A DNA stretch of 64,000 nt from Aptenodytes patagonicus (Eukaryota > Chordata > Aves > Sphenisciformes > Spheniscidae): positions 48,946,151-49,010,150 of the forward strand of contig NC_134949.1 in NCBI RefSeq assembly GCF_965638725.1, read 5' to 3'. The translations under genes and the position numbers were made by a program. The stretch's first letter is position 1, and each line of letters starts with the position of its first letter. Below are positions 1-64,000 of the stretch, piece after piece. The notes under the pieces were generated by a model that was not told the origin of the DNA, did no database searches, and saw only the letters and a program-made list of their open reading frames with translations.

Positions 1-1617
1 AGATGACCATGAGTGTGGGAACAGTGACTTTCCATTTGTGGACACTGAAATTGTAAGGGACCAGCTGTATCAGCTGAATGTTCACAAGTCCATGGGGCCT
101 GATGGGATTCATCCCAGAGTACTGAAGGAGCTAGGGGATGTTATGGCAGGACCCCTCTCGATCATCTACGAACAGTCTTGGGAGTCTGGGGAGGTCCCTG
201 CTGACTGGAAGCTAGCCAGTGTTACTCCAATCTACAAAAAGGGCGTAAGGGAAGACCCAGGGAACTACAGACCTGTTAGTCTAACCTCAGTTCCGGGAAA
301 AATTATGGAGAAGATTATACTGCATACTATTAAAAGGCATTTAAAGAATAATGCAGTCATCAGGCACAGTCAACATGGGTTCACAAAGGGAAAGTCCTGT
401 TTAATTAATCTGATACCCTTCTCTGAAAAGGTCACCTACATAGTGGATGAAGGGAAGGCGGTGGATGTAGTTTTTCTGGATTTTAGTAAGGCTTTTGATA
501 CTGTCCCTCACAGCATCCTTCTGGACAAGTTGTCCAGCTGTGGGGTGAGCGGGTTCACAGTGTGCTGGGTGAAGAACTGGCTGAAAGGCAGAGCTCAAAG
601 GGTTGTAGTGAAGTGGGCTACATCTGGCTGGCAACCGGTCACCAGCGATGTTCCTCAGGGTTCAATTCTGGGGCCAGTCCTGTTCAATATGTTTATCAAC
701 GATCTGGATGCAGGAGTTGAATGCACCATTAGCAAGGTTGCTGATGATACCAAACTGGGAGGTACTGTTGACTCTTGAGGGACAAGAGGCCTTGCAGAGG
801 GATCTAGATAGATTGGAGCACTGGGCAATGGTTAATGGGATGATACGTCCGAATGCCGCCTTCTGCACCTGGGATGGAGTAACGCTGGGCACAAGTATAA
901 ATTGGGAGAGGAGTGGCTGGAGAGCAGCCCTGCAGAAAGGGATCTGGGGGTGCTGGTCGACAGCAGGCTCAGTATGAGTCAGCAGCGTGCCCTGGCAGCC
1001 AGGATGGCAAACCGCATCCTGGGGTGCATCAAGCACAGTATAACCAGCCGGTCAAAAGAGGTGATTATCCCGCTGTGTTCAGCGTTGGTGCAGCCTCACC
1101 TTGAGTACTGTGTGCAGTTCTGGGCCCCACAATTTAAGAAGGATGTGAAGGTCCTCAAATGAATCCAGAGGAGGGCAACAAAGCTGGTGAAAAGGCTGAA
1201 AGGAATGTCCTGTGAGGAGCAGCTAACGGCTTTGGGTTTGTCTAGTCTGGAGAAAAGGAGGCTGAGGGGTGACCCCATTGCTCTCTACAGCTTCCTGAGG
1301 AGGGGAACTGGAGAGGGAGGTGCTGATCTCTTCTCCCTGGTATCCAGTGATAGGATGCGTGGGAATGGTTCAAAGCTGCACCAGGGGAGGTTCAGACTGG
1401 ACATTAGGAAGCATTTCTTTACCAAGAGGGTGTGCAAACACTGGAACAGGCTTCCTAGAGAGGTGGTCGATGCCCCAAGCCTGTCGGCGTTTAAGAGGCA
1501 TTTGGACAATGCCCTTAACATGCTTTAACTTTTGGTCAGCCCTGAAGTGGTCAGGCAGTTGGACTAGATGATCATTGTAGGTCCCTTCCAACTGAAAAAA
1601 GAGTCTAGTCTATTCTA
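1..1617 (+). mobile_element. CR1 non-LTR retrotransposon, 3' part, decayed
   Basis: The copy runs in from the left window edge. The frame at 38-778 reads an endonuclease/RT linker and the RT palm: motif [14 protein letters not shown], motif B region [15 protein letters not shown] and motif C ADDTKL. That frame ends at a TGA at 776-778 and the coding sense continues in other frames (902-1162, then 1187-1528 with the [16 protein letters not shown]-terminal block), so frameshifts have broken it. The 3' end is typical of avian CR1: GATGATC near 1567, a TTCCAACT block near 1585 and a degenerate tail to about 1617. It is not expected to be mobile. It lies in an upstream intron of RLIG1. Confidence 0.93.
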
Positions 1618-6016: not shown

Positions 6017-6142
6017 TTCTGTATCGATACTGAGGATACTAAACACTAGCCTAATCAACAGAAACATTGCCTGGACTATCCACTTGAATGCCAAACTCTT
6101 CAGAAAGCTGCTTTAATCTCTCCTCTAAGATAATATTTTTTT

Positions 6143-6238
6143 TTACTTCTTCATTGTATTGTATTTCAGATCCTCAATTTCTTCAAAAAAGGAAGGGTCA
6201 AAGTGTTCTAGTTCTCTTCTCGGCTTTTTTGTTTCTTC
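6143..6238 (-). CDS. CEP290: CEP290 exon 57 (last), frameshifted
   Basis: The acceptor CTTTTTAATAG is at 6239-6240. It encodes core residues 2410-2440, with [19 protein letters not shown] matching human [19 protein letters not shown]. One base is then missing relative to the conserved frame, so the frame reads TMKK and stops at TAA 6143-6145. The other frame stays open and human-like (EEVKKNI, LKQLSEEFGI) to a TAG at 6051-6053. Confidence 0.85.
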   Translation of the reverse strand, partial: EETKKPRRELEHFDPSFFEEIEDLKYNTMKK

Positions 6239-12200: not shown

Positions 12201-15200
12201 CTCTGCACATTCACATGGTTAGATGTAGATTCAAATGCAGCCAAGCTGGAAAATGCAGGTTGCTGGCTTCCAGTTTTTGTTTCAGATTGTTATCCACATG
12301 GTAAGGTATTGAAATACTTTCTAAGTTCAGCAAAAATGCTGACATTATTCCACAAAGCACAAATACAATACATTTAAGCAGCAAGGAACACAAAATACTT
12401 CCTTTACCAGAATTATCCAGAAGTCTACAGCTGATCTGAAGAAGGGAGGTAAGTAACTGGCTTCTGTATAGAAGCAGCTAACAAAGCCAGTACTTAAGGG
12501 TACTAGATCTCTTCCGGATTCGTATCAGAGACCTATATACTGATTCTACATACTAATATAGAATGAGAAAATAAAATACGGATAATATAAAACTATCTTC
12601 AAAAGAGGAAAGAAAAATTGTGAAAATGAAAGTCTAATTTGTTTGCTAATATTTAAAAAGGAATTAACACTTGTGTTCATCTTCCTTACTTCATTCTCAA
12701 TTCCTACCTTGTTACAACAACGGACTTCCAGCTTTTGCTGTCAGCTCTGTCAAATTGGCTCTCAGCCAAATTTAGCCTCTTAATGGTTTCCTCCAGCTGT
12801 ACAGTTAACTTCTTATTTAATATCTCCAAGTTATTCTTCGCTATTCGTAGCTTCTCTCCACTGTCAGCTTCCTATTGTTCAATAAAAACACAGGTTTATG
12901 GAATACTTAACCTCACATGAAGCACAGGATTATCTAAAATGATGGTGAGATAGGGTCAGTGCTGATTTAGAGGAAAACAGTGCATCCAAGATCACTAGCA
13001 CTACAACTTCCAAATTCCGTCTTGGGCTGTCTCCTCTCCACATATAATTAAAAATTCTGTCATAGCAGTATCAGTGCTTAGAAAAGGGTCCATTCCACAT
13101 CAACCATTTAAAAAAAAGAAAAAAAAAGAAAGATACTGGCCACAACCAGTAACTACAGTAACTAATGGAAATAAAGGGATGCATTACAACCATCATACCT
13201 TTTTCAGTTCTTTACGCAGCCTCTCGTTTTCAGTAATGACTTTTTCCATTCCTTTGGTTTTAGATTCATAATGCACACTCAGCTGGCCCCCCAGATGAAG
13301 TTTCATTTTTTCCATTTCAGACTAAATATCAAACAGTTTGTTAAAACACATATACATTGCTTAGTAGAAAATTTCAGATTTCCATTTTTAAAATACAGCA
13401 TAGTTGCAGCTACCTAGCACAGTGAACATAACATTTCATCACATATTTAAACATGTCCTTAAGAAACAGAGTACCTTTACACAAATCATGCAGTAAGTTA
13501 TGCTAAAATGAAGTTTTGCTTTTGTGTTCTACACGTTTCATAGCTGGTATTTTTAAAACACTTTCGTGCCAATCAATGTCAACAACAGGCTTGCTGCTCC
13601 ATTTTCCTACTAACTTGCATATAAACTGCTATCTAAATATAGTTATTGGAGATAGATCAGTACCTTTAGCCTCTCATTTTCCCGTTCAAGACCAAGTAAT
13701 TTCTCATTAGAAACCACAGCAGGAGCTTTTTTCAGCTCTTCATTTTCTCTTTGGACTCTCTCTACAACCTTTTTCATCAAACCAATTGTTTTTTCCAATT
13801 CTGGGACTGTCTTTCCACTTCTACCAGCCTATAGAGAGGGAAGAAAAAAAAGTAAAAGGAAATAAACCATTCATCTTAACATTCTGAGATACTCCAAATC
13901 TTACTTTTTCGCTTATTTTCCCATTGCAATTTATATTTACAAAAAAGATGTTATATTTTGGTGTGACTTGAACACCAAAGTTCTTGCATACTTAGCTCCC
14001 CAAAATGATATATTCACCCCAAAGTCACCATATCAGCTCCTTCATTTTCTGTGTTACCCAGGAAAGCTGCAGTTAGTCTCAAAATCTGCTGTACTTTATG
14101 AACTAAACTGAAACATTAGGAAAATAAATCAAAGTACTACTTTTTTTGTTTTAGCTTTTCTTGTAGAGCAATTACCTGATCCAATAGACCGTGCAATTGC
14201 TTGAATCCTAATACTGTCTGAGGGGGGAAAAAAAAAAAAAAAGAATGGCTGGGAGCTTGAGGGAGGAAAAGGGGGCCCTTTTTTAGCAACCATACTTCTG
14301 CTGGATTAAAGTGACAGAAGAACTGCATCTTAAAGCATGAGTAAATCTTCTCCCCTTCCCAAGGCATATATTCTTGCAGAGTGATAAATAAATAAATAAA
14401 TATGGGGAGAAAAGCTTGTAATTTCTCCATTTTTCTTCTTTCGCTACGTTCATTTATGAGGTAGAAAAGATGTTAAAGGGTGTTCAAATGCATTTGTTTT
14501 CTCATCATTTTTGTAGTGACTGTTTTCCTCAGCCAGTAATAGTTTAAAGATGCTGTTGTTTCTAGTTCTGCGCCCAGGAAGTACCTCCTTTTCTTTCTAC
14601 AGAGGTAAGGAGCACAGTACAGTGGAAAACGCGGAAGATTTTACTCCCTGGAGCCCTATAGAAACCTATATAGCGACCAAGCTTTGGAAGTAAAAATGAC
14701 TTATTCTTTCTTCTCTAAAATAACTGGAGGGATTAGGAGGTTTGTGTTGGTACACAGCAGAGTTAAAGAAAAACCTCTGTCAGATCTTGGTGCCTGAAAA
14801 GGGAGGAAGATTCAGAATTTGCTGCCTCCTCAGAACCTTTGCATGAAACAGTTTTATAAACTGAATTTCCTTACCCAAAAACTACCACTGCATAAGAGAG
14901 AGGCAGATACACAAGCAGTCCATGCAAGGTACAAGTAAAAGAATGGGAAATACACAATCTTTTCCAGGTACCAAGAAGTACAACCCATTCTCCTTGTATA
15001 CTGAAAGAGCTACGAAGGCACTTAAGAGCTTTTATTAAATCAGCTTCCTTTAAAAGGTCACACAAATAGTTTGACAAGTTAGTGGCAAGAGAGATACTGG
15101 GCACTGCTGAAGCCTTTTTTTCCTGTAACTTCTGAAATATTGCTCTATTAAAGTAGCTGACAGTAGCTAGGGTAAAATTTAACTGTGTCATTTTGCATAG

Positions 15201-18200
15201 TACAACAAAAAAAAACTTCACTAATAATAACTTACACTTTCTAGCATCTGCATCAAATCAAAATCCTATCTTTTAAATCATAAAGCTGTAACGATTATGC
15301 ATTTACATAAATACATGAATATAATTTTCAGTTTTCATATAATTCATAATTTAGCTTCAATAAAATATTGCTTTTTCGGTATTTTGGTTTCATTTAATTA
15401 TGATGAAAAATGCTATTACAATACTCACCCCTCTAATGCTGCCCAGCTTTCGTTCAACATTTGCTTTCTCTTTTTTGAGAAGTTCACACATTTCTTTTAA
15501 GTCACCTACTTGGTCCTAAAAAACCAAAGTAATAAACAACTTATTTAGATTTCAAATTGAGGTGAACAGTAACAAAATTACAGTTGGTTTACTTTGAAAA
15601 ATGTAAAGAGAAAGCAATTTCCGATCGCAATGACATTTTTCATCATTTCTACCAGCCATTTGACTTTCTCATCTTCCATAAAAACATGAAAAACTTACAG
15701 TATGTACAGAAAAGATATTCATTTCTTCTTCAGCAATCCCCTAACCTGTGTCAGGGTAAAGGGGACTACAGGTAAAAAGATGATACCTTTAGTCTTGGCA
15801 AATCTTTATTGGCCTGCTCTAGCTGGAATCTTAGCTCAACGTTTTCAGATGACAATGTTAAATTTTCCTTTAAAACCTCTTGTTCTCTTCGATATTGATT
15901 GCCCGATCCTATTCCTGATGTCTTGAGAAAACGGAGGGAAAAAAAATTATTATTAAGTGGTAATGCACTACTCATTCTATCAGTTGTAGCTGATAAAGAG
16001 CAACAGCGAATTAGTATTTTTCACAGAAATAAAACAGATGACAGTTGTATCACCAGTTTTGATCTAACCTGCTCTGACTTTAACTCCTTCTCTGACATTT
16101 TCTAAACTTGCTTAACCTTTAAGGGAAGTTTACAGATCAGTATGAACCAGTAAAAATTTTGTCAAACGAAAATTAACTCTCAAACTATTGGGTAGAAATA
16201 AATCTCAAAGTCTAAAAGACAAAAAAGCTACTGAGTGTAGTAAGCTGTGACACTGTACCTGGGAACAGCATGTAATGTTAAGGACATATTCTGATATGTT
16301 TATTAAATAGTACATATGGCATCAGGAATTTCACTGAAGTCAGATTACAGAGCAAGTCAGGAAAAGTAGTGTATAACTCTAGTTCTTAGTCTGTTAGTTC
16401 CTACAATCTTAAGTCTTTATCCATGGAGGCTAGTAATTTCTATTACATAAAGAGTGCTTTGCATGCCTTATATTGCCAACTCCAATCGTAAGTATATGGT
16501 AAATTATTATGCCTGACTAGTAAAGAGTAAAACCTTTTGATGATATAATAATCAGCAGTTTTTACTTATGTAATTATGGAATTAACCATATGATCCATTA
16601 ATTCATCACTAATAATGATAGAAATAAAGTATTTGCTTCAATAAAGCGTATTTTTTTCTTAGTGTAAGTAATAACACATCAGAAGTCTCTTAAGGAATGA
16701 AGGTCATCAACTAGCTGCATGTATCATTGTGATTTTGTAAACTTTCTGGATCGAAATTTTAGAACTGACCATAGCTTACTTGTGAGTTGACATGCATGCC
16801 TATCATGAAAGTATAAGGTTTGCTTTATGGACCACTTGGTGACTACTTCAATATACCTGCAGACCATGCATAGGAAACCACTGCATTATCAAGATCAAGT
16901 TATTCTATTTCTACATCATTTATACAGAAGAAATGATAGAGGACTGCTACAGCATCAAACCTCGGGCATTTCACAAAATTCTGGGGTTGTTTCAACCCCG
17001 TCTGTACCACTTTGGTAAGTTTCATGTTTATCCTCTGCAGTGTGTTGATTCATTTCATTATTCACATTTATTTTTTCTGCTTCATAATCATTAGCTTGAT
17101 TAGAAGGTTCCCCTGAATCAGACTGATTGCAGCTCATTCTGTCAGTATAAGGCTCTTCTACACTTTCTTCTTCATCAACATTTGATTGCTTGAGTATTTC
17201 TTGCTTCCTCTCCTCTTCTTCAAATTCCTCATTAAATTTTCCATTTTCAGGTTGGGTTATATTTTCTTCTTTTTCACTGCAGTTCTCTTCATCAGCTTCA
17301 GCTATATTTTTGTTTTTCAATCCTTCCCTAGAAATATCTGTGTCCTTGCATTTCTCACTATCTTCAGGATGCTGTTCAGGAGACACTTCTGTGCTTGCAT
17401 TCACAGTAGCCTCATGGCCTTCATTATGCATGATGCATGTTTGCACGTGTGCTTCCTCATCTATTTCATTGCCATCAGTAATGCTATGATTAGTCTGATG
17501 TTTGATTTCATCCCTAATTGAAATAGATTTCTTTTGAAGGGAATTCAAATACTTTTGTTTACTGATACTGATAGGAACAGAGTTGGTCAGTTCAGTTTGG
17601 TCACATGTACTCTGATTCAAGTTGAAGATAGAATGAAGCATGAAAGAAAAGCAGAAGACAGTAAAACAAAACAGGAAATAAAGAAGCCTAGAATGTATTG
17701 TTAAATCTATTTCTTGAAAGATTAAGATAACCCAATAATGCAATATTTGCAATATATGAACCTTGTAAAAATCAAAACACAACAAAAACACCTAATGTAA
17801 CTGAAATGCAGCTCAGTATTTCCCCAACCTCTGTGTATCCCAATTTTTCAATCAATATGGAATATGAAAGTAGTCTCTCAGTTGCAGACTCACATATTTA
17901 AAAATACATATTCCTTATTTCTCCACATATGCTAGGATGCTGAATATTTCAGCTTCTACCTGTAGAACACTGAAAGTATAAGTTTTGGTTTTGGGGGGTT
18001 TTTTGGGGTTGGTTTTGTTGTGGTTTTTAAAAACACTAAAAGCTGAGTATTTCATATCCTGTTCTAGAATACTATAATTTGAAATAAAACCAGCTAAATG
18101 ACACAGAATACCAAATGGATAACAAATATTTTTGTTAAGTAGGTGCAATTCCTCTAGGTAATATGGTTACATCATTAACTTACCGAGGGTTTAGAATGTG

Positions 18201-21200
18201 TCTCTCTCGAACATTGTCTCTGCAATGCATGAAGCTTTTCCTGGAGGTATTGATTTTTGAAATGTAATTCTTCTACAACAGAATCTCGTGGGATTGCTTG
18301 CTGTGTTCTACATCAAAAAATGAATCAAGCCAAAACAAACAAATGGTTATTAATGCAGAAAAGCATCCCTTAAGGTAAAAAACCCATGAACTTCTGGATT
18401 ACTAGACTGGATTTTCTAGTATTACTGAGGTAGTTATGCTTAATCAGTGTTAGCCATATACACTATTTCAACTAATCCCCATGAATCGAAACTACTTACT
18501 TTGGCAGAAGGAATCTGCTCTTTTGTGATGTGTACAGCTTCTATTACTCAAGTACACTATCCACTGTGATAGTGGATACACTGATTAAGAATACACTCCC
18601 TAACTGCAACTTAGCAGTTCCAGTAACTTTCACCAACCCTAAATTGTAATTATAATTTTACACAATAGGAGCCAGATGTTTTTCATATTATTTAGCTTTT
18701 TAGAATAATGAACCAATGCTGCATATTCTCTGAACATGCACAATTGCTCCCAAGTAGCTTTAAGTTTGCTCGTCACAGACTCAGAGAAGGATTTTTGAAA
18801 TTCCCATGTTTTTTTCCTCATTGAATCAGTTGGTCTAACAGAGACTATCTATCTCTTTCCACAGATTTTTTTCTCATTTAGATTTTTTAGTTTTTATAGA
18901 TTCTTTTAAAATGCCTCTCACCTCATGTGAGCAACTTCATTTTCTAAATCTAGATTCCGTTTTCTTAGTTCTTCCAGTTCTTTTACAGTCTCTGAGGCTC
19001 TTACTCCAGTAACACGGTCAACAGTGACACCAGTAGTTTTCAGTTTCTTCTGTAGAGCAATTTTCTCTTTTTCAGTCCTGCAACATCCAGTAAATTTACA
19101 TTTAAAACTTTATTTGCTAACTTGCTTTCTTTAGGAGAAAATATTTTCTGTCTTAAAGAATCCACATTTGCAATTTATTTGCTCACTGAACCACACCCCC
19201 TTTTCTGTTTAATAAGGTTACCTTATAGACAGTACAGCTTTACCAACCCCACCCTCCCCCCCCAAACCCAAAAACTAAACCTGGAAAAAACAATGAACAT
19301 TAAGTCAGTATCATGCATGTCATAAACCACTTGCTGGTCTTGCCTGTGTTTTATGTGAAATTCATGCAAGTCTTGCAAAGAATAAATGCCATTTTGAAGC
19401 AGTTTCAAAGCACAATCTAACAACAGCTACAATCACCATCAGAGTTTCCTTTCTCTTCTGCATCTTTTATCAGTAAAACCCCACCGTTACTGTACTGAAA
19501 TAAATGTAACATTTGCAGAGGGTTTGCGCATGTGGTTTTTTTTAAAAGGCTTCCATCTCATTATTCTAGAACCGTGAGCACTGCAGTAGCACTACATATA
19601 ACAGTAGCACAGTATCCAATCCCAGCAATCTGATTAAATAACGCAGTGTGAGAAACAGCCTGTCTTCCTAAAGCTGTTATTTGTTTCATGGGAATAACAG
19701 AATGCTATATACAAGAAGCATAATAGAGGACTTAAATTAGTTTTATTCAGAGACAGTTTCTTGCAATAAAGGTTGTTGGCTTCTACATGGGAAAGGATAC
19801 TAGAGTAGTAGCCTGCTGCTTGAAAATTAACTAATCCTTTTAATCTCAATAGCAATGTCAAATTCTAGACATCAATCTTATAAACAAAACAATTATTACA
19901 TGGCAAACATATTTGGATTTCCCTTAGGTCATCATTTTGCAGCTGAATCTATTAAACCAACTCACTTGGTATAAATTTCCTTCAGTGTATTCAACTGTTT
20001 GGCTAAAGCATCTACTCCTTTTTCCTTTTCCCTTAGTTTGTTCCGCAATCCTTCCATTCTGATATGCCATTTTTTACCTTCTTCCCTTCTAATTATTTCC
20101 TCTTTGGAGGCCTGTGAAGCACATAAACAAATTATGTATTTCTTTTTCAATTTTTTTCTTAAAGCAAAATAAGCAAACAAGTTAGAAAACCAAGAATGAT
20201 ATATTCTTCATTTATCAATTTAAAACATGAAGCCATAGCAGGCATGTATTATTTACCTTATTTACCATAAGGTAAATAGCAGGCCCAGCTGGATACCTTA
20301 AGTATGCTGTAGTGACTGGTGTATAAAGCTGATGCAGTTTAATGCTACTACCAAATTCTTCCTTAGCTTTTAATATTCATTTTACAAAAAAGGAGTGACA
20401 CATTTTATGAAATTTAGAGGTGCTAGTGCAATGTATCCTTTTACTTTGAATTACACGTTAGTAAAGAAGACAGGTTAAAGAAAAAGAAGTGTTTTTCTAT
20501 GCCAGTTTACAGCAGATCTGTCTTCTGCAGCTCACCAGGAGTTTATATCCCCCTGCTGCACAGCTGTACAATTGGTCATTTTAGTTTATTTTTTCCTATG
20601 AGAAATGGAATCTCTACTTAAAGTTATAATTCAGTAACTATAAATTATACATCAGTTAAAACCTATGCCTATGTCATCACAAATGGCTACTGAAAAATCA
20701 CAGTCAATATTCCTGTAAACAATCTTTGGTTTTTTTAATTGGACTTTTTCCTTCTCCAGTTAGCCCCTGTACTTTCTTTTCTGTCTTCATTCTAAACAGT
20801 TACTGCTACTAAGGGACAGACAGAAAGCAAAATCTTGGAAAAAGGAAAAAACATGCCAAGTTTGAGAAAAATATCTCTAGACACTAAGCAACAGGTATTT
20901 AAAAAGTCTCAAATTAATTGGAAGCCTAAGTGCAGTCCTAGAATAATATTTAATATAATAAATAGTCTGAATGTCATTATACAAGCATGCTATAATATTC
21001 CAGTATACTTTATGATTACTATGACAAGCCACTAATCAGTTACTGAAGTAGTAAAATAACAAGCAAAAAACCAAACAACTGGTAAAATGAACACATCTCC
21101 AATCACTCAGAACCTCTTGTATGTGGAGATCACTCACTATTGTGAAGAATAATCACTTATACAGACATCATCCCTTTTAGGATTCACACCTTTGCTCCTA

Positions 21201-27200: not shown

Positions 27201-30200
27201 TTAAAAACTTACTACAAAGAATCTTCCTTTGTAAAATCACTTAGTGAAATAAGGAATAGGCATAGACTGGTTTTCTAATAGCATGCAGAAATACGTACCT
27301 TGTTCTGCTGTACAATTTCTTCTTCCAGATTATTGATTGTACGTTCATATTCAGAAATTATATTACGCAAATACTTCACCTCTTCCTTTTGCTTGACTAG
27401 CTCTCGATTGAGTTTAAGTTCTTGCAGATGGAGTTCCTCCATCTTCATATGCCATTCAATTACCTAATAATGAATGATACACTATTATATTTACCAAGTC
27501 CACAGGCCAACTAGATGCAGCTACACTCTTCGACTTTGAGGCAGTATGGCGCTTATCCAACCAACAGGAAGAAAGAGGTTCTGCCTTTTTAAGCCTCTTC
27601 ACTTCTCTTGCGCGAGGAGGCATGGCAAGAGTATGAAACTGCAAGAGGAATGACTGAAAAGTGCAGCAGACAATTGGAGAGGCCACAGGTTTCCCCTACA
27701 CTGACAGAAGTGCATTGCAAATAAATTTCAGATGACCTAACTAAGCTATACCCTATGCATCTGTCCAGACTGAACAAAAAAAGCATGCAAGAAGTTTGGT
27801 TGACTTTTCTAAAACAGCAAAAGATTTTCAAAACCATTAAAAACTGTAGGTATTCAAAAATGCACAGGTACTAAGAATAACAGACATATTTATGTCAAAA
27901 TGCTCTAGAAAAATATTTGAAAACTGGCTTAAAACTGAAACACGCCAAGAGCGCTACAACCATTAAGCAAAATACAGACATCTTTACTCATGACAGATAT
28001 AACCATATTATATAATACACAGTGATCTGGAAGAGAAGCGAGAAAGCCTTATTCAAATTTCAAGGCAATGTTGTTTACAATAGCAAAATATGATTAAGTA
28101 GAATTACATGAGTATAATAACATTTCTGACCATGCTGTCTAAATTATTGCCCCTGGATTTATTTGAAAAGACATGGATTTGTAGTGAAGATTTCAATGCT
28201 AGCTCATGGAACAGAACTTCAGAATGCTACTCTGTGTTTAATTTAACTTCATTCATAATTCAATTCAATTCATAATTTAATTCCATTTAATATAACTGAA
28301 GTTATAGTTAGCCTCTACTTCCTATGCCACTTAATTGGGCAAAAAATAAATTAGTAAATCTGACTGTGCTTTTACAGGGCAAATAACTAACGATGTATTA
28401 CTTTTTTTAAAACAGGAAAACAAAAAATGATAGCTGTTATATTCTAACAAAGTGTGTTTTGAAGTCATTAAGTTCTACGTTAAAACAGATGTTTAGGGAA
28501 CAAGCTGAACTGAAATGTAATTTAAATGCAGATCAGATGAACAAAAGTTATTCAAAGTTGTAAAATAGCAAACCTTTTGAGCTCCTCTTGTATCCTTCAA
28601 TGCACTTATTAATTCTTCTAAACTTTTCATTTTTAAGTCCATCTCTAATGCTCTGTTTTCTGCATTCCGACGGTCCTGCTGGGCATGCTGAACTTCTTCC
28701 AGGATCTTCAGTTTGTCATTCTGTAGCTGAATCATTGTTTTAGAGAATTTTTCTTGCTGTGCTAAAGGCAGAGCACCACTAAACTGTCGCCGCAAAGACT
28801 GAACTGTCTGTTGTAGATGTTTGGCTCTATTTCTTCCTTCCAGTCGGGCAAAATATAAGGCTTGCTCTCTCTCATCAAGCTTCTGTTCCAAACGTAGATT
28901 ATGGATCTCCATCTTCTGTAGTTTCAATTTAAGCGTCTCCAATTTGCCTACAGCAACAGATTCACTACCTTGAAGGGCTATGATATGTTGATGCAGTTTT
29001 GCAATAACTGCTTTTTCATCTGACTGTGCCTAAGAACAAAATATATAGAACAAATTTATTTTTCATTTTGAGTATGTTAATGCAGTGTATATGTAAATAC
29101 AAACAAGCTATTATTTTTTTATATTTTATATATTGCATGTATTTTATTCCATAGGTAAGAGCAAGAATTAGCCTCTAAAACCAGCTTTTTATTTTTCCGC
29201 TATTGTTCCTACAGCCACATTTTAGAAGTACACCTTTTCAGATACCGATCTTAAAAACTGTATCTTTCCAAAACAGGAAATGAGGAAGAAATGTATACCT
29301 AAACTTAGATAATACGGTAACATAAAAGCTGACAACACTGTTGTATTTAGGGATTCAAACCATTCTAGAACATGAAAACAAATCCCAAGAAATTGTTTCA
29401 GCGAATTATAAAGCAATATAATAAGTCTACTGCAAATCTTCAAGATTTACAAGTCATTGCTTGTCTTGTAAAAAACGATCAAACTTTCCTGATATTATAT
29501 TTAAATATTGACCATGAGCTATTAATCATATAGGAATAAATATTACCTAAATAACATGGAAAATAGCTCAGGATCTGTAATAGCTGTACAGCTAGAAATG
29601 GAAAAAATGGAGAAGGTAATAATTAATGTAATATAGAACACTTGAAAGGGTATGGCGACTACGAGGACCAGCTTGCTGAGGTCCTTCTGAAATGCTTTTG
29701 CAGTTTCCTAATTCACTGTAAAATTACTTCATTTCTTCTCACTATGGGAAAAAATCCAAACTGCAGTGTTAATAAAGGTTGAATTTTACCTGATAGTCTA
29801 AAATTTGCATTCTAAGAGATTCCACTTCTTTATCTCTGTATTGCTGGCGTGCCTCCAGAGCTTCAACTTGCATTTTTGCTACATCAGACAGTTCTCTTAA
29901 CCTTGCAGGGAAAACAAGAGTATTGTGTCACTTGAAATCACTGAATAACGTATTAAGTTTTTCTACATAGAAGATGCTAAGAAAAGATGCTTAGTATGTT
30001 TCCTCATATCAAAACATTTGAAGACTTTGTTCTTTTCAGCATACTCTTCTCTACTACTCAAAGTCCTTGTTACGAAAATTCTTCTGTATTGCCTCTCAGC
30101 TTTTTCACAGGACATTTTCCTGTAAGTTATACAGAAGTTTGCTAGCAGTAACCTACTCAATGCCATGGTTTTTACCTGAACGAAGCATGTCTGTCCCCTA

Positions 30201-43900: not shown

Positions 43901-46900
43901 TCTCCCCAAAAGATAGGCATGCTTGGTGTTTAACATGATAGGATATTCCAAGGATAAAGTAACATTAAGAAGAGTAAGATTTGAACTTAAAAGGGACAAA
44001 CTGGTAGATCCAATAAGTAAATTTAATTAAGATTTGTATAATTACACTGTTCACATAAGCTAAATTCAGCATCTTATAGATTGTGTGGTTTTGTTCTAAA
44101 TTATCAGAGCAGCCACTTTTCAAGTACAAAATAAATTGCATAAAATAAACTATATACCTTTTCATTTGCATTTGCCAGCTGATTAGAGAAATTTGTTGCC
44201 TCCGCCTGACTCTGTTTCAGTTCCTGTCTTAATTCTTCATTTCGTCCTGTAAGCTGGTCAACCTGAGCTTTCAAGTGCACACTAGCATTCAAGATTCCCT
44301 CTGAATTCCTTGACTCCATTGCCTAATGCAGTAAACATTTAATTAACAAAACAGAGAAAAAGTGCAGAAAAGCATTGTTTTTTCATAATAAACTGGAGCC
44401 CTTAAGTTTAGACTACATGAAATTAGCAAAAAGCATGAAATTTTAACATTTTAAAATCTACTTATCAGTTTCCTGATGGTATATTTGCCATAGACTGTGA
44501 TTTAAATGGTTAAATTTTCCTGTAAAAACACTGATTTTTTTGGTAAGATGTTTGAATAAAGAATTTTTCTTAAATATTTCCTGCAGGTCCCATAGAGATA
44601 AGACATGCAAACAAACTTTTACCTAAGCTTTATGACTGCGACAATAAACTTGCCATAGACAGTTTTATACTATCCAGCTGAAGATTTTTTTTTGTTTTTA
44701 AATTTTTATTGGTAATCTCTTGTTGCTGTATATTTTTAATTTGCATTTTTAAAGAGGTATCACACTATGTACTCCTACTTGTAACTAAGGAAGTATATGT
44801 ATAGGGAAGCTACTATTTAATTTACAATAACCCAATAATTGAGGAGGAAAAAAAAAAGCCTGTAAATCCTATACAGCTAAATAATACTTTAGAAAGCAAG
44901 CTTACATTAACTAAACGATCCAGACTAGGGATTATTAAGGCTGTTTCTCCTCCCTTCACGTTAGGATCCTTCTGCATTTCCCTGACAGCTTGCAATATTT
45001 CTTTCATTCCTTGTTCAAGTTGTTTATTCTCTTCTGATAATTCTTTAACTGTAATAAAAATTGTAAATGTGTCTAAAAGCACTGAAAAAATGAGTTAAGG
45101 TTTCCTAGAACATTTCATCATAATACTTGTTGATTTGATATATAAAAAGAATTTTCATATTATATATAGACATAACCAATTAGGAAGTTAAAAGTAGAGC
45201 TGCTAGGAACATCCAGAGAGTATGTTTTGCTGGAGAAATACCAACAAAACAATAATGAAATGCTTTATGGGAACACATTTGACTTTATTGAACCTTCCAG
45301 TCTACAATGTTTCCTGCCACTTTTTTCACTTCTTTAGTAGCCTGTCTGACTGGCTTTCACAAATCCAGAAACATGGCTGTCTTGGCAATGTTTGGGTATA
45401 ACAATGAAGTATATAGGAATTGCCTGAATTCCTGCTGCAGACTGGGAAAAAAAGAACACGTAAATTATTTGCAATAAGGACTCTCAAGACATACAGTTTT
45501 CCTGCCACCATTAGTGTCTCAGTGGAATTCCAGAGTTTCCAGCATAGAGCAAGAAGCCTGGAAACTTTAAAAAAAACAACAAACCTGTCAGGACATTCTC
45601 TGCATCTTAACAATATGGCTAACTGTCCTGAAGACCCAGGAGTGAACTGCAAAATTTGGAGCAGTTTGAGCAGTTTCACCAAGTCTATTTTGAAAAGTCA
45701 AAAAGAATTTTTAGAATTCACATTCTCTGGGAAAAAATTAAAATTCTTGTCTGGAGAAATCAGCATTATTTTTATTTCAGAGTTTGCAAGCAGTGCACTT
45801 CAGCTAACATACATATATACGTAAGCAGCAAGTGGGTTTAATTCCTCAACACTTCCCTGGAGCCAGAAAAGCACTACAATTACACAAGTAAATTGTGTAA
45901 TTGTTATAATTGGGGTCACTCACAGACTTAAAGGCCTTATTAGGTCTAATTCAGGAAGGAAAAACATGAGATCCTAGTTTAATGTATTTAGTATGAATAA
46001 ACTATGTTTCATGTACTATCACTAATTTAAGTTTAAAATTAGCAACACTATATATGTATTTATACACACGCACACAAATATATACACTAATATAAACACA
46101 ATTTTAAAAAAAAAGTCATTAATGAGAATTCAAAGCAATTCCAATTCGATAAGTGCCATTTACATTCATTGTTTTGTAATCACTGTGTTCACACCTGGAC
46201 CAATTCACAACCATAATTTCCACAGTTCAGAAGTGTATCAGAATGATTGTATAATAACCTTCTATGTACACAGCAAATTCAATCATTGTGAAAGATACCA
46301 AAGTAAACTGCATTTAAAACAGAAACTGTAAAGTCAGATATTTGTGTTCACAATCACAGAAACAGAACAACTAAATAAGCAAACTATCTGCAGGTACCTG
46401 ATAACATTCCCTAGTTTTAAAACAGTTTGCAACTTACATTTAGATTGAAATTTGGCTATTACAGTCCTGTTCTTCTCCAAATCTCTCTCTCTCAAACTTA
46501 ATTCATTTGTAAGGTAGTCATTCTAAAGAAAAGAACAAAGACGACTCAAAAATTGTAATTTAGGAATTTTAGTATTAGAATTTTCATTAAGACTGGTTAA
46601 ATGAGTATAAATGCTTGAAAATATTGCTAATCCATATATATGCAACAGTGAAATTACATAGTATGTAAACCAAAATGAGGTGTTACATAGAAGGCAACAA
46701 TCAAAGAAATAGCCTCATCTTCACAGCAACTAAATTATCAGGAAAAAATATTTAAACCATGCATAAACTTTATATAAATATTTATCCTGTTTTTTTTTTT
46801 TTAAAACCTTGTACTACCTGCACTGCCTGGCTTCTGCATCTTTCAAGATTTAATTCTCTATAACTATTTAGCATATTCTTGATCAACAAATCTCTGGATA

Positions 46901-49900
46901 TCTGCTCATTCTAAAAAAACCCCAAGTTAGTTATTACTATAGGATTGTATCTCCATTTATATAGAAAAAAAATTGTATTTCCAAGACTTATCTTCCAAAA
47001 TATAAAAAACCCCACTTCTTTTCTACTGAAAATGCAATAAGTAGGCATTATTTATTCCACAGCTTAGATAACACAGTATTTTAAGAGAAATCACAACAGT
47101 AAAGCATACTCCTGTAGCATGGAAAAACTTGTAGAATTGAAAAAAGCCTGATGTATATAGACTTATACTTTCCATTGATCAATTACATAGCTCAACAGGT
47201 TCAACAGAAATGCCATCAGTTCCAAAACATTTCAGTTAAAGATAGGAAAGACCTATTTGCTTATCTTATACATTGTAATCGTGATGTTTCCTCATCACAT
47301 TCTTAGATGGTTTCTCCCAGACAAAAAACACAGATTCTAATTTTAGCAATCTAATGTTCTAGTCCCAGCCTTTTTTCAAGTTTGGAGTATGCCTTCATGA
47401 AAATTTCCCAGTCCACATATGAATCTCCTGCCTAAAATGCAACGGCAACAGAGATGGATTCACTGGAAGAATTACACAAGGTGTATCCCATGTAACACTG
47501 TCTAGGCAAACGTATTCTGGGGTCATGCAGCAGTTGGAACAACAGTCTGGTACAGACCAAGAATCTGTGAGACTCTGAGGGATTGACTTGATCCATGCCC
47601 CAAATGTATCTCTAGCAACCAAAGCAATGTCCTCCACTATACTGAAAACTCACACACCATTTCAAGGTACCAATTTAGGAAGCAAGCAGTAAGTAATTCT
47701 TTTATATGATTTATCATGTGAATAAAAGAAACCACAGCAAGCATCCTGAAATCAACCCATTCTTTCACTGATTAGAAAAAGTTTTCAAAAACCCTTTTGA
47801 GAACCTAAAAGATTTTATCATTAGAGATCATTTTAATGAATAATGGAATTTTTCATTGGAAATCATCTTTTCTGAAAACAGATACACATTATCTTTGTCA
47901 GTTGGCAGGGAAATGGATAAAAGGATAGAAGAACCAACTCAGGAACTTCTTAGATGTTTCCCAGAAGGAAAGGCCTTTCTGATTTCAAAAGTCTAACTTT
48001 ACACCATCTGTTCTCTCTGGAGGCAGGAGACATCCTCTAGTCAAATAACATCTGCGTCTTTTAACAGAAATCTCATCTTCTGTCTTTCATACCAAAGGAC
48101 TGATTCAGTCCCTACTTCATTCAACTAACGCTTGTAAATTACCATTTGTATTTCTCTGTATTTATTTAAAACAATTTAAAAAAAAAAAAATCTCAAACTA
48201 TGTTGTTTAAAATACAGTTGCAACAATTAATTTGTATGAGATGCAGGGCTTTATGCACTAATAAGAAAAGTGACGAGTACTTTGTTTACACAGACGTGTA
48301 TAAGGTCTAGGAATAAAACCTGTTCTCTCTTTGTACCCATCTATGTGTGTGTGCACAGGTGTTGTGCAAACTTTTTCCACTGACAGAATGAAAATATATT
48401 CCTACATTTTTCAATTCTACATCAACAAATAAACTGCAAATTAATGACTTGGCACTTTTTTATTAGAAGAAAAAATGCCAAATTCTATTAGAACTATCCT
48501 ATAGCTTTAATTAATAAAGATGAAAGTAAACTAAAACATCTTTATTATTTGAATTTATCTTCTAAATAACTGCAATAGATATAAACATACCCATACTATA
48601 AAGGTATCTCACCTGTGATCTAAGAAGGACTAATTCTCTCCTCAATTGCTCTATGAGATTTTCAACAGGATCTACCTGACCTGAGCGTTCTGATTGTCCG
48701 TTTTCAAGTCCACTTGCCAAAGTTTTTACTTGCAACAATTCTGTTAGGCATTTCTTTCCTTCTCTGTCGTCTTGAAAGGTAGTTAAATCAGAAAACTTTA
48801 CTTGCGAACAGTCTTGCTTATCCTTCAATGTCATTATTTGTGTTTTGTGCGTTACTGGCTTTCCAAGAGCAGATGCACAAGGAATCAGAGAGTTTTTGCT
48901 GAGAGTGAGTCCTGGGCAAAAATTTTCCTGACCTGTTTGGTCTGAATTAGAAGTTACGGACACTTGATTCTGAAAAGATGGTTTGTTTCTGTAATTCCGG
49001 TTATTTACCTCTGAGGCCTGACACACTCGCTGATAAGCAGAAAAAGAAACTGTGTAGTCTGATTTCAAGTCTTTTGACATCTCTCTATTGTCTGTATCAT
49101 CTGTTATTCCTGACGACTGTGTAAATTGTAGCTCTGGTGATACGAAAAGCTCTTTTATATCAAGAGTTTCAGAACTACAGTTGTCATTAACTAGTTGCCA
49201 CTCTGTCACATGTTTTGAACCTAAATGAACCGAAGAAGTATTTCTACTTTTTTCCAAGTGATCTAAGTTCTTAAGTACGCCATTAGTTCTTCTAGGTAGA
49301 CTTCTCACAGCCTTACTGTTTTCAGCTATATCTTTCTCTGACTCCAAAAGTCTAACTGGTGCTTCTCTATCTGCAAGTCTGTTTCTCCTTTCCACGTTAC
49401 ATGAGCTGCTAGCCTATATTCACAAAAAATATAGAATATTCATTAGTCTTCTAAAAAAATTACAAATTATTAATTTTTGGATTTTTTAAAAGCCGTTAAT
49501 AAAAAGCACCTAGAGAAATATTTGAACAGATATTTACAAAATAACATTATTTTTATTTTGAAAGAGAAATACAATAAATGTTTATAAACTTGCTTTATGA
49601 ACCTACCTTTGCTTTTACTTCAGCAATATCATGTCTGTTCAAGAAATCCAACTTGCTCTTACTCATTCCCTTCTCTTCAGTAAAGCTATCAGTTACCTTG
49701 CCGTCACCAGCATCCAATCCTAATTGCAAGTAAATGTACAAGTAATAAATTATTACGAATTTTTAATTGGTCTCCAAGCAAGGGAATATATTCCATTTAG
49801 TATATCTGAGCTCTAGTTTTCTACCTGCAAAGTAAGGAGCTGTACACCTTTCCATTTGAGCACATTATGCTTCCCTGGGTGGCACAGAATTGAAATTTTA

Positions 49901-58985: not shown

Positions 58986-61900
58986 CTGGAACAAAAATTG
59001 AAATAACAACTATCAGACATGATCAGTGCCAATCAATTTTATGTCAAATGATTCAAACAAGGCTGGCCACTGAACCACACAAGATGATTCTAATAACTGT
59101 ATTGATTTTGTAACACTGATTAACACTGTGTTCACATTTTGGTCTACTGCAAACAAGGAGACTATAGTAAAACCATGTTTTCTTTAAGTTAAAAATTACA
59201 TCATGCATACTCAATGAATTTGTGACACTAACAGTGAAGATCACAACACATGAAACCTCTATTTTAACTTTAATATCCTTCTTTTCCTCCCCACCTCTCA
59301 ATACGGTATTTTTATGTTAATGAACAAACACAGCCTGATGCCCTTTGAACCAGCCCTTGTAGGATAAGCATCTCCTTACAGTCACAAAATCATTATTTCT
59401 AATATTTAAAACACAACCAACACCTGCTTTAGTTTGATACTATAAGCATCCACTTGACATTCATTTCTAAGATATTAAACTCTTGCATTAAATATCTTTT
59501 CCTTTTGATTAGAATACTTGAATTGATAAAGGACAGTAAACAACCTGGAAACTGACAAAAATCTGATCAGAAAGTGGTGCAAAGTTTTGTTCTACTGCTT
59601 ACCTACTGGTTGCTGTGGGCCACAGTGACTTCTCATATACCTGAAAGTCAATGGAGTATCTGAAAAAGGCAGAAGAGATTGGAAGTCTTGGATTATTCTA
59701 TTCTCTGGTACTGTCTCTAGCCTTTATTATCAATATTTCAAAAATTAGATTCTGCAAAGTTTAAAACAGAACATTTTTTAATCTACCTACTGCCCTAAAT
59801 TATGAATAGGGCATAAATGGTTAAGAAAATTAAGAAAGAAAGAAAACTGACTAGAACATTAAATTAATTATTATTCAAAAAACTAATCATACAGCAGGAA
59901 TATGTATTTTATAGAAAAAAAACGAAGCTCAATCAATAACTGTAACAATGCTCTATGCTGAGCATGATATTTTGAGATCTGTTCCATCATGCACCCTGTT
60001 CATCATTCAGCAGTTTAAAGACTCAACAATTGAAACTTCCTTCCTCAATGAAAGGCTGAACTGGTATTACTTTCCCAAAAAATATGCCTAAGCAGTCTGA
60101 AAGAAGAGCTCTAAGACTTTGAAATCCAGCTGTAAGCTTAAGGGAGGATAAAAATCAACCTTTCCTCACCTTTTCTGAATACATGAACTACTTGAGAGCT
60201 CCCCTATATTTACCATTTCTTCAGTGTTTGCTAAATGTTTTAGAAAACATGCATTCCATATAACCCATGACTTCATGAGGATAACATCATATATACATTT
60301 TTGCTTTTCTGCTTTGTTGTAGATGGCAAAGGAAAATACAAGAAAATCACATGCAGGCACAGACTGATCTTGGCACTCCTACTTCTTCAGTTAATTGAAT
60401 ACTACTTGATTTCATTAACATAGTTATTTAAGGGTTGTTTTTTAAAAAACATATTAATTTTTTCTTAAACAATGAGATGTAGGAATTATGGGTATGAAAT
60501 GCCCGACAATCAAAACTATTCTGAAAGCAAATACACAACCTTATGACTGTCAATCTTTTCCTACCTTCCATCTTTCAAATCTCTTTTTCTCTTAACTTAT
60601 AAAAGAATGTCTTAAGAAAGAATCAATCCTAAAATTTTATCCAAAAGGAGAGATATCTGTACATAAACAAAATAATCCAACTTGTTGGAAGACTAGCTAT
60701 AGTAAGGTGTGGGGGGCACAACCTAAGCATACAGTATGTTCCACAGTATGTACATACTTAAGGACAATAAGAGAGAACTTATTTAATTGAGGAAATGGCC
60801 TCAAGTTGCGCCAGGGGAGGTTTAGATTGGATGTGAGGAAAAATTTCTTTACTGAAAGAGTGGTTAAACATTGGAACAGGCTGCCCAGGGAAGTGGTTGA
60901 GTCCCCATCCCTGGACGTATTTAAAAGACGAGTAGATGAGGCACTTAGGGACATGGTTTAGTGGGCATGGTGGTGTTGGGTCGACGGTTGGACTCGATGA
61001 TCTTAGAGGTCTTTTCCAACCTCAATGATTCTATGATTCTATAATTCTAATTGAAGAGTTTTCCATCATAAAATTTAGCTGATCCCTTGCCCTCAACTAG
61101 AACCTGTTCTTTTGGTTGACAGATGATCTGTGTGGTGAGGCACTGAGATCATGGCTCTACAAAAAGTGTGAAATAGATGTGCATTTGACATTAGTTATCA
61201 CAAGATTTTCTTGACTTACTCAAGTAATCAAACATACATAAAATGGCCAGATGTTACAAAGTTCAGCAAGGGCATAGAAAAGGAGGTCTGGTGGGCATGT
61301 TTAGGTACTGCCAGAATAACAATGTCCTGTGCTGCCCATGTAAAGAGGCAGCTAAGCTGCCATGCAGATACCTTACCATCACAGTGAAATTAAGCACCGG
61401 TAGAAACAGCTGTTCTTTTTCCGTACAGGTGTGTACAATGTGCAGCACAGAGTCATGTATACTTGAGCAAGACTGAATATGAAGAAGCAGCATAGTCATG
61501 TGGGAGATGTGCTCTGCTAACTCCGTATTAGTTTACCAAGACTAACCCAGCTTAAGCTACTTCTGATTTTCAAATTACACTACCCAGACTAGCTCTCATC
61601 TACTAGCTCTACAGAGCACTAGATCTTAACTACAAAGCCACAACCAAAATAGGATCTTGTGCAGGGTTCCTATTTTCTTCCAATCTGTATATCCCAGGCC
61701 CGGGAATGATACAGTGACAGACCGCGATCCCTCCAGGATGCTGCTGAGAGACAATTTGGCCTCCATTTCATCTGACTCTCCTGAATTAACAAATTGCCTT
61801 ATTTTGCGTCCACCTTCATCGCGGGGCATAGCTGAGGCATCAATTTAGAACAGACAGAGCGGGCTGTAACCTTCTCCGGGCACCGCGCTGCGACGATGCC

Positions 61901-62104
61901 TGCGCCCGGACGCTTCTGCCTAGGACCCGCGGCCCCGCCTCGCTCCCGCCCCCGGTCCGGCTGCCCGCTGTCCGCGGCGCGCCTGGGGGAGCGCGGACCG
62001 CCCCGGCCGGCGGCAGCGCAGAGCGCAGCGATCTTGGCCTCCTTCCTCAAAGCAGCGCCGCGCCCACTCGCGGCCGCCGGGCACCCCCCGCCCCTCGACC
62101 TCAC
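58986..62104 (-). other. CEP290 intron 1
   Basis: 3.1 kb intron holding a CR1 3' fragment (60778-61046) and, at its right end, the left part of the CpG island. Otherwise AT-rich. Confidence 0.55.
60778..61046 (+). mobile_element. CR1 LINE 3' fragment
   Basis: Reads the CR1 ORF2 C-terminus ([20 protein letters not shown] in sense) followed by the 3' end: GACTCGATGATCTTAGAGGT, a TTTTCCAACCT block and ATGATTCTATGATTCT repeats. It is better preserved at its tail than the copy at 1-1617. Confidence 0.93.
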
Positions 62105-62300
62105 CGCTCCCCGAGGACGGCGTTGGCGGCGGAGGCCGCTGCTAGGCGACGCCATCAAACTCCCCCGCCGGCTCCGGTCCCGGGGACCCGGATACTCGTG
62201 GGTGCGGAGAAAGTCAACACTCCCGCGGCACGACAGGCCCCACGGTGCCAGCCGGACGCTCCCAATCCCGAGGTACTGCACGGCGACACAGCGGGGAGAC
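62105..62300 (-). other. CEP290: CEP290 exon 1 (5' UTR), predicted
   Basis: The donor GGAGCG|GTGAGG is at 62104-62105. The segment includes GATGGCGTCGCCTAGCAGC, very like GATGGTGTCGCCTAGCAGC in the human CEP290 5' UTR as I remember it. The transcription start (right end) is a guess, placed just downstream of the X-box. Confidence 0.5.
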
Positions 62301-62337
62301 GGGCGGGGCAGGGTGCGATTCTGCTCGGGTCAACCGT

Positions 62338-62351
62338 TTCACCATGGCAAC
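62338..62351. promoter_or_regulatory. RFX X-box-like motif
   Basis: TTCACCATGGCAAC matches the ciliary X-box GTNRCC-(N0-3)-RGYAAC except for the first base. X-boxes bound by RFX factors sit just upstream of many ciliary genes, and CEP290 is one. Confidence 0.65.
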
Positions 62352-62381
62352 GGCGCTGGGCCGCAACCCAGCTGGCGGCGG

Positions 62382-62401
62382 ACTGCGTGTCCCAGCGTGC
62401 C
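62382..62401 (+). promoter_or_regulatory. ZNF143 (STAF)-like site 1
   Basis: ACTGCGTGTCCCAGCGTGCC resembles the ACTACAATTCCCAGCATGCC consensus, keeping the TCCCAGC core. Confidence 0.4.
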
Positions 62402-62417
62402 GTGCGGCTCCCCTGGG

Positions 62418-62437
62418 ACCACAGCTCCCGGCATGCC
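62418..62437 (+). promoter_or_regulatory. ZNF143 (STAF)-like site 2
   Basis: ACCACAGCTCCCGGCATGCC is close to the ACTACAATTCCCAGCATGCC consensus. Such sites are common in bidirectional CpG promoters. Confidence 0.55.
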
Positions 62438-62519
62438 TCGGGGCCTGCCCTCCCGGGACGGGGAGGGGGGGGCGGTTTCCCGACATCCTTTGGCGGTCGG
62501 AGGGAGGTGGGGAGTGCCG

Positions 62520-62531
62520 TGCGCGTGCGCC
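62520..62531 (-). promoter_or_regulatory. NRF1-like site
   Basis: The - strand reads GGCGCACGCGCA, one base from YGCGCAYGCGCR. Confidence 0.45.
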
Positions 62532-62608
62532 GTGACTGGCGGCGGCGGCGGAGCGAGCTGTGGGTGGCGGCGCTGGTAGCGGTGAGGCCGTTTCCTCCGC
62601 GGCCTCAG
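62532..62608 (+). other. TMTC3: TMTC3 exon 1 (5' UTR), predicted
   Basis: Assigned by position and synteny: in human, TMTC3 starts head-to-head with CEP290. Two donors are possible, CTCAG|GTAGGG (62609) and AGCG|GTGAGG (62582). The start is a guess. No TMTC3 coding sequence is visible in the window. Confidence 0.4.
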
Positions 62609-64000
62609 GTAGGGCGGGCAGCGGTGGGCTGGGGGCTCTTCCGCCGCAGACGGGATTTGGGGGGGGGGTGTTGGGTCCGGCGTAGCTGCTGCCCGCGGTA
62701 GTTTCCCGCGGCGGCGGGTGGTCCTCTCTCCCCTGGCCGTGCATGCCGGGCCTCATCCGTGAGCCCTCCGCGCCTGCTGAGCGCCGGGCTGCGGTGCGAC
62801 CTCGGTCCCTGGCCACGCTTCCGCGCCGCTTGAGCGGGGCACGGGCCCGCGCCCCGGCTCGGCCCGCTCCTTTCCTCAGGCTTCCTGGCGGCGGCCGCTT
62901 GCCCGGCCCCCTCCGCCCCCCACCCTGGCCCTACGTTTCCTGCCTCGCCCCAGGGCTGCGGGCAGCGTGCTCTTTCCCGCACGACCGGCTGACTGGAGGG
63001 CTGCAGCACTGCCCAGCTGTGCATGTGCTTCATGTGTAAGTACGTAATAGTCGGGGCCCAGAAGATAGCTTGCGGAGCAGTACAGAAAAAGATCACATCT
63101 ATAAACTACTCGGATCCATTGCGTACTGGTGGCCAGCGAGGAAGTCTGAGCGTTGGTAGATGGCCCAAAAAGTTTGGGGTCCTGTGTTTTAGCTAAATGG
63201 GTGTGAGCATATCTCTTCAAATAAAAAAGGAAAACCAGCAACCACTTGAGGCGTGTGTATATCTTTGTATTCATTCAGCAGCTGTGGAGAGCTGAAGATG
63301 ATTTGTTTTTTATTTCTAAATGGAGAGAGAAAGGTGATCATAATGTCATCTTTGGACACTTGCCTTTTTCTGGATTATTCATTGTTTTCTCTTTCTTTGC
63401 TATCTCTTGATTATTGTTGATATTTAATGAAGGCTGACAAAGACGCAAGATGCTTGGCACTCCTTATAGTTATGTAACTTGGTCCAGTCATGGCATAACT
63501 CTTAATTCTTGATTGAAAGTAGAGACTTTTATACATCATCCAGAGATGGGTTAATTACAGCTCTGTGTTGGGTAAGAAAAGCAAAGTTTGTAGATAGGGA
63601 AGGGAAAGAGACTGTTTTATATTTCATGAATGGAAAATGTTACTAAAAATAAAATTCATTCTGGTTAAGTGTAAAACAATGATTTCTTAGCAGGATGGAC
63701 TTTTATAGGTAGAGCAGGTGGTCCACAGAGAATAATGCTGCCTTGCTACAAGATGAGCTTTCAGGAAATGGATCCACCTGTGATACAGAAAATAAAATAA
63801 TCCATTGATGTAAGGATGCTTTTGAATAGGAACTTTTTTTGTTAACCTGATGAAGAGGATAAAAAAAGCTGTTAAGGCTAGTATAGCTATTTAATGTACT
63901 TTATTTAATGTGCTTCAGCTTTTTTTTGAGTATTGTTCTGTATCAACAGAAAATACGCTATTACATATACTGGTAGTGAAACCACATCTAGGTTATAATT
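62609..64000 (+). other. Presumed TMTC3 intron 1
   Basis: The GC-rich tail of the CpG island to about 63000, then AT-rich sequence with no coding exon or known repeat. Confidence 0.4.

What the first reader, a model, noticed from the sequence alone, without database searches (positions are those of the whole stretch)
16961..17611. Unrecognised 651-nt acidic exon inside CEP290, with a built-in truncation switch
Between the human-equivalent exons for SKPS and SGIGSG lies a 217-codon open frame on the sense strand. It has a long pyrimidine tract, the acceptor CAG|AGTACA, phase 0 at both ends and a strongly acidic peptide. The only in-frame exit, GAG|GTTTGA, is a weak donor, and the unspliced reading stops two codons later. 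The exon could therefore either insert about 217 acidic residues or end the protein there, removing the P-loop-like motif and the last 400 or so residues. I know no such segment in human CEP290.
Basis: partly seen in the sequence, partly recalled or inferred. Interest (0 to 1): 0.85.

Follow-up and report, generated by a model that had tools for sequence, protein, structure and literature searches.

The report
Extra acidic exon in bird CEP290
In what looks like a bird genome, the cilium gene CEP290 appears to carry an extra coding exon of about 217 codons, acidic and probably unfolded, that the human protein lacks; it is most likely an in-frame insert in the protein's tail rather than a truncation switch.

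Summary
Minus strand 17611-16961 is a 217-codon stop-free stretch in a phase-0 CEP290 intron, between exons equivalent to human residues 2045 and 2046 (human sequence recalled). It is not chance: 5,000 dinucleotide shuffles never gave fewer than 4 stops, and the longest of 5,358 non-exonic ORFs in the gene span has 135 codons. A coding model from the gene's other exons scores it +9.2 bits/100 nt, against at most -11.0 in 65 intron windows. It is single-copy in the 1.35-Gb genome.

The unrecognised-exon reading is supported. The truncation switch is not: 8 of 53 other donors meet a stop as soon, and another in-phase donor (17065) scores better. The last 60 nt carry no coding signal, so the 3' end is less certain.

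New: a larger human-absent exon (801 nt, 49413-48613) and a 93-nt one (46910-46818).

Most likely an optional or constitutive disordered acidic linker in the C-terminal region. No RNA, second species or existing bird annotation could be consulted.

The parts
16961..17611 (-). The finding: extra 651-nt, 217-codon acidic exon, phase 0 at both ends
   Evidence: single copy in the genome
17612..17690 (-). Pyrimidine-rich, AG-free acceptor region of the exon
   Evidence: acceptor score 5.27, above 9 of 49 placed introns; nearest upstream AG about 78 nt away
16955..16960 (-). Weak donor GTTTGA; read unspliced it gives Val and a TGA stop
   Evidence: score 3.14, above 1 of 49
17060..17065 (-). Alternative in-phase donor GTGAAT inside the exon, giving a 546-nt exon
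   Evidence: score 4.98; coding signal continues beyond it to about 17021
18184..18307 (-). CEP290 exon upstream, ends ...THSKPS (human residue 2045, recalled)
15787..15921 (-). CEP290 exon downstream, begins TSGIGSG (human residue 2046, recalled)
48613..49413 (-). Second human-absent exon: 801 nt, 267 codons, phase 0 at both ends
   Evidence: acceptor 6.96, donor 10.51 above 47 of 49; frame score +2.0 against -19.9 and -24.1; single copy apart from one weak match at E 0.25
46818..46910 (-). Third human-absent exon: 93 nt, 31 codons, phase 0 at both ends
   Evidence: acceptor 5.34, donor 4.93; frame score +5.3 against -26.1 and -18.5

Best explanation
The stretch is a real coding exon of this animal's CEP290, spliced in frame between the exons for ...SKPS and TSGIGSG..., either constitutively or, given its weak donor, more likely as a cassette exon whose inclusion varies. 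Inclusion inserts about 217 acidic, mostly disordered residues as a flexible linker into the C-terminal part of the protein, after the microtubule-binding region. Shown by sequence: coding signal, frame, phase, single copy, usable splice sites. Inferred: that it is spliced into mRNA, that inclusion is regulated, and that the linker changes how the C-terminal coiled coils sit against or restrain the microtubule-binding region.
For: 0 of 5,000 shuffles stop-free; longest of 5,358 non-exonic ORFs 135 codons; +9.2 bits/100 nt in frame against -9.7 and -43.2, at most -11.0 in 65 intron windows, unchanged when each intron is held out of training, and at most -0.6 in 500 base shuffles; best segment of the intron 17602-17021 with 71.1 bits against at most 15.7 in 159 intron scans; phase 0 fits both neighbours; single copy; two donors of the GTTTG type serve human-matched exons of this gene; the same gene has two further human-absent in-frame exons.
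Against: No RNA and no second species. The donor scores above only 1 of 49, itself doubtful. The last 60 nt (17020-16961) score -4.9 bits and do not prefer the frame; only 2 of 30 known exons have a negative last 51 nt. The whole exon scores below all but 5 of 43 known exons. Regulation and mechanism rest on inference.
Confidence: 0.75

Rival explanations
1. Alternative terminal exon: the donor is not used, translation ends at the TGA two codons on, a poly(A) site in the intron is used, and a CEP290 without its last 434 (human-numbered) residues is made.
For: Weak donor; stop at once after it and an AATAAA at 16304, about 650 nt on; no coding signal in the last 60 nt says little either way.
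Against: 8 of 53 other donors meet a stop as early; AATAAA is at chance density; exon length is a multiple of three in a phase-0 intron, though 39 of 53 introns are phase 0.
Confidence: 0.1
2. A relic: an exon once used in CEP290 that this lineage no longer splices and that has not yet decayed.
For: Weak donor and fading signal in the last 60 nt.
Against: No stop or frame break in 217 codons; coding signal over the rest.
Confidence: 0.09
3. A piece of another gene or mobile element that landed in the intron and is not part of CEP290 mRNA.
For: No relative in human CEP290.
Against: Single copy in the genome; no Pfam family; same strand and phase as CEP290, signal starting at an acceptor.
Confidence: 0.04
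4. A chance open frame in T-poor intron sequence.
For: The stretch is A-rich and T-poor (271 A, 138 T of 651), which lowers the stop rate.
Against: 0 of 5,000 dinucleotide shuffles of the stretch stop-free; shuffles with its own base content score at most -0.6 against +9.2.
Confidence: 0.02

Closest known systems
Human CEP290 (2,479 aa, sequence recalled)
   Same: Exon by exon homologous; flanking exons match human residues 2004-2047 and 2047-2090; CEP209_CC5 domain
   Different: Human protein runs from SKPS straight into SGI with no insert, and lacks the 801-nt and 93-nt exons (recalled sequence)
In-frame skipped exons of human CEP290 (exons 36 and 41)
   Same: Phase-compatible exons whose presence can vary without breaking the frame (passages of PMC6562928)
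   Different: Those are short exons of the conserved coiled coil; this one is long, acidic and absent from human; its skipping is not shown
RPGR exon ORF15
   Same: Long purine-rich exon in a ciliary photoreceptor gene (abstract start of PMC8856954 in a search listing)
   Different: ORF15 is a repetitive terminal exon; this stretch is in no tandem-repeat array and is most likely internal

Membership tests
Coding exon of CEP290 | Open, coding-like frame in the gene's sense and phase | tested here: met
Coding exon of CEP290 | Usable acceptor and donor at the ends | tested here: inconclusive
   acceptor 5.27 above 9 of 49; donor 3.14 above 1 of 49
Coding exon of CEP290 | Present in spliced mRNA | not testable with these tools
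   no RNA data held
Coding exon of CEP290 | Frame conserved in related species | not testable with these tools
   no other vertebrate genome held; own genome has no relatives here
Alternative terminal exon (ORF15-like) | Stop followed by a poly(A) signal beyond chance | tested here: not met
   one AATAAA in 1,039 nt against 1.2 per kb in the introns
Alternative terminal exon (ORF15-like) | Tandemly repetitive | tested here: not met
   no array at 16961-17611 among 7 rows
Exonised mobile element | Further copies in the genome | tested here: not met
   one place by DNA and by protein

The most novel reading that the evidence does not exclude
CEP290 of birds, and perhaps of other sauropsids, is a substantially larger protein than the mammalian one: about 515 extra, mainly disordered residues in two places, with the acidic 217-residue insert acting as a regulated linker, or in some tissue such as photoreceptors as an alternative end, that tunes how the C-terminal part controls microtubule binding at the ciliary transition zone.
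Probability: 0.2. Interest if true: 0.65.

Novelty: new variant of a known kind. Interest (0 to 1): 0.42.

Why it matters
CEP290 is among the most often mutated ciliopathy genes. Long extra exons in one vertebrate lineage would show which joints of this rod-like protein tolerate large disordered inserts, would bear on the design of shortened gene-therapy versions, and would mean that bird models carry a different CEP290 from ours. It would matter less if bird annotations already list these exons, which could not be checked here.

Tried and rejected
Relatives of the exon peptide: none in phage records, viral contigs, prokaryote genomes, Pfam at E up to 1; one PDB chain at E 0.95, not significant. 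These collections hold few or no vertebrates, so absence there says little.

Vertebrate CEP290 hidden in those collections, sought with the exon at 13664-13828: none in prokaryote genomes. Two viral-contig matches (L001, 32 residues; L002, 28 residues): L001 has no tblastn match to recalled human CEP290 at E 1e-3 and its long frame looks like a phage structural protein by eye; L002 was not examined, because the script stopped.

A retrocopy of CEP290 that could prove splicing was sought with the finding, exon 31 and the 801-nt exon only: the first two occur once, the third once apart from a match at E 0.25 with a stop inside.

CK2-like sites are not enriched in the peptide (10 against a mean of 9.0 in shuffles). 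The truncation switch was set back.

Papers: of those listed (15, 15, 12, 10 and 12 titles of 758, 26, 65, 807 and 72) none is, by title, about extra CEP290 exons in birds; the rest of those lists was not seen. PMC3784542 is not held.

Limits of the scores: splice weights were typed from general knowledge. Of 50 exon pairs one placement (571/609) was dropped as wrong, leaving 49; among these the one at 541/551 was later corrected to a GC-AG intron at 50377 and the one at 1039/1034 (donor score about 0) is doubtful. One search trained with the uncorrected boundary; one search repeated it with the corrected one and gave the same result.

Full report
What was checked. The window holds a CEP290 gene on the minus strand. 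Independently of memory, Pfam assigns CEP209_CC5, 'coiled-coil region of centrosome protein CE290', to the exon at 28574-29029 above its curated cut-off (67.3 against 25 bits). The window lies in a 1.35-Gb genome of 618 contigs, which fits a bird, but the species was not identified.

The gene model. Neighbouring homology blocks were joined at GT-AG sites that keep the frame and best match the human protein, completed by hand in the region of human residues 571-609 and corrected at one GC-AG intron at 50377. Without the finding the model has 54 coding exons. The exon before the finding ends at 18184 (...THSKPS), the one after begins at 15921 (TSGIGSG...), and the intron between is phase 0, as are 39 of 53 introns of the model. 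In recalled human CEP290 the boundary is residue 2045/2046; 434 residues follow.

The finding. 17611-16961 encodes 217 residues without a stop; the other two sense frames have 12 and 40 stops. Among 5,000 dinucleotide-preserving shuffles of the stretch none is stop-free, the lowest count being 4 and the mean 16.4. Of 5,358 stop-to-stop frames in the gene span that overlap no exon, on both strands, the longest has 135 codons.

Coding signal. A three-periodic second-order model, trained on the gene's human-matched exons against its introns, scores the stretch at +9.2 bits per 100 nt in the right frame and -9.7 and -43.2 in the others. Known exons of 90 nt or more, each left out of training, range upward from -0.3 with a median near 15.5; 5 of 43 score below the finding, so it sits at the low end of real exons. 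65 intron windows of the same length reach at most -11.0, also when each intron is held out of training; 500 base shuffles of the stretch reach at most -0.6. Scanning the whole intron in this frame, the best segment is 17602-17021 with 71.1 bits; 159 scans of introns give at most 15.7. On 39 known exons the same procedure places both edges within 51 nt in 38 and fails on one.

The edges. The 60-nt block before the acceptor scores -24.0 and the first block of the exon 0.0; the next nine are positive, and the block that holds the donor and the stop scores -15.5. Part of that drop is inside the exon: the last 60 nt (17020-16961) score -4.9 bits in frame and -4.5 in another frame, and only 2 of 30 known exons have a negative last 51 nt. 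The 5' edge is therefore well marked, the 3' edge is not. The in-phase donor at 17065 would end the exon earlier, but in-frame coding signal continues for some 45 nt beyond it (17065-16961 scores +5.1 although its last 60 nt score -4.9), so 16961 remains the better guess.

Splice sites. The acceptor scores 5.27, above 9 of 49 placed introns, behind a pyrimidine-rich tract with no AG for about 76 nt. The donor GAG|GTTTGA scores 3.14, above only 1 of 49, and that one is doubtful. Two exons with clear human counterparts end in similar donors, AAG|GTTTGT and AAG|GTTTGC, so the type is used in this gene. The donor AAT|GTGAAT at 17065 scores 4.98, so 'the only in-frame exit' is wrong.

The truncation idea. 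Reading past the donor gives one codon and then TGA. In the same gene 8 of 53 other exons are followed by a stop after at most one codon and 25 of 53 after at most ten. The sole AATAAA or ATTAAA between the exon and the next one, at 16304, is at chance density (53 AATAAA in 44,321 intron bases). Nothing marks this stop as a built-in switch. A short isoform is possible but not indicated.

The peptide. 25% D/E against 9% K/R, net charge -36, pI 4.35, 17% ILVMFYW against 28% in recalled human CEP290. AlphaFold2 on the single sequence gives mean pLDDT 52.9; 139 of 217 residues are under 50, with helices at residues 5-9, 16-44 and 123-143. A single-sequence model is weak evidence, but the composition agrees with disorder. 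There is no Pfam family at E up to 1, no significant PDB match and no relative in phages, viral contigs or prokaryote genomes, where none would be expected.

Origin. In the own genome the stretch occurs once, by DNA and by protein at E up to 10; the search warns that very common words are skipped. It is not a dispersed repeat by these searches. Exon 31 of CEP290 also occurs once at E up to 0.001, so no retrocopy was found with it.

Not alone. The intron near human residue 608 holds a second long exon, 49413-48613, 267 codons, acceptor 6.96 and strong donor CAG|GTGAGA (10.51, above 47 of 49), and a 93-nt exon at 46910-46818, all ends phase 0. The long one scores +2.0 in frame against -19.9 and -24.1, the short one +5.3 against -26.1 and -18.5. 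The long one's signal is weak: its best segment, 48872-48612 with 24.8 bits, covers about its last third, and 1 of 43 known exons scores below 2.0. Recalled human CEP290 has neither. A third in-frame insertion at 17611-16961 is thus more believable: the model protein reaches 2,735 residues without it (up to a stop caused by an apparent frameshift near the end) and 2,952 with it.

How it would work. The insert falls after model exon 41 (21659-21543), which by recalled human numbering holds residue 1890, assigned to human exon 41 in PMC6562928; [quoted passage not shown] From memory of Drivas and colleagues 2013, not held, the part of human CEP290 C-terminal to that domain restrains its activity. 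An acidic, flexible linker of 217 residues between the microtubule-binding part and the C-terminal coils could loosen that restraint or keep the tail off the acidic microtubule surface. This is inference. In-frame skipping of CEP290 exons is reported in human tissue (exon 36 in retina, exon 41 in fibroblasts; passages of PMC6562928), and CEP290 intron sequence can yield extra exons recognised differently by mouse and human cells (abstract of PMC3819269), so a cassette exon with a weak donor would fit what is known of the gene.

Verdict. The switch reading is not supported. Missing are RNA, a second species and a look at existing bird annotations.

Noticed in passing
48613-49413 (-): Second long extra CEP290 exon of 801 nt (267 codons), absent from recalled human CEP290, with a strong donor but a coding signal concentrated in its last third.
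   Followed up: partly
46818-46910 (-): Extra 93-nt in-frame exon absent from recalled human CEP290; its peptide begins NEQIS, a little like the next exon's NDYLT and human NEFLS (blastp E 0.23).
   Followed up: partly
6060-6238 (-): Apparent one-base frameshift in the last matched exon: two homology blocks in different frames meet at 6158 and the model ends early in NTMKK. Assembly error or real was not tested.
   Followed up: no
50377 (-): GC-AG intron: GAG|GCAAGT donor after ...ILLQE restores the human-like junction.
   Followed up: yes
61832-62698 (+) and 62217-62930 (-): Long overlapping open frames on both strands beyond the 5' end of CEP290 (289 and 238 codons), possibly a GC-rich promoter region or the first exon of a neighbour; composition not computed.
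   Followed up: no
2-775 (+): 258-codon open frame at the window's left edge on the plus strand, beyond CEP290's 3' end; identity not examined.
   Followed up: no
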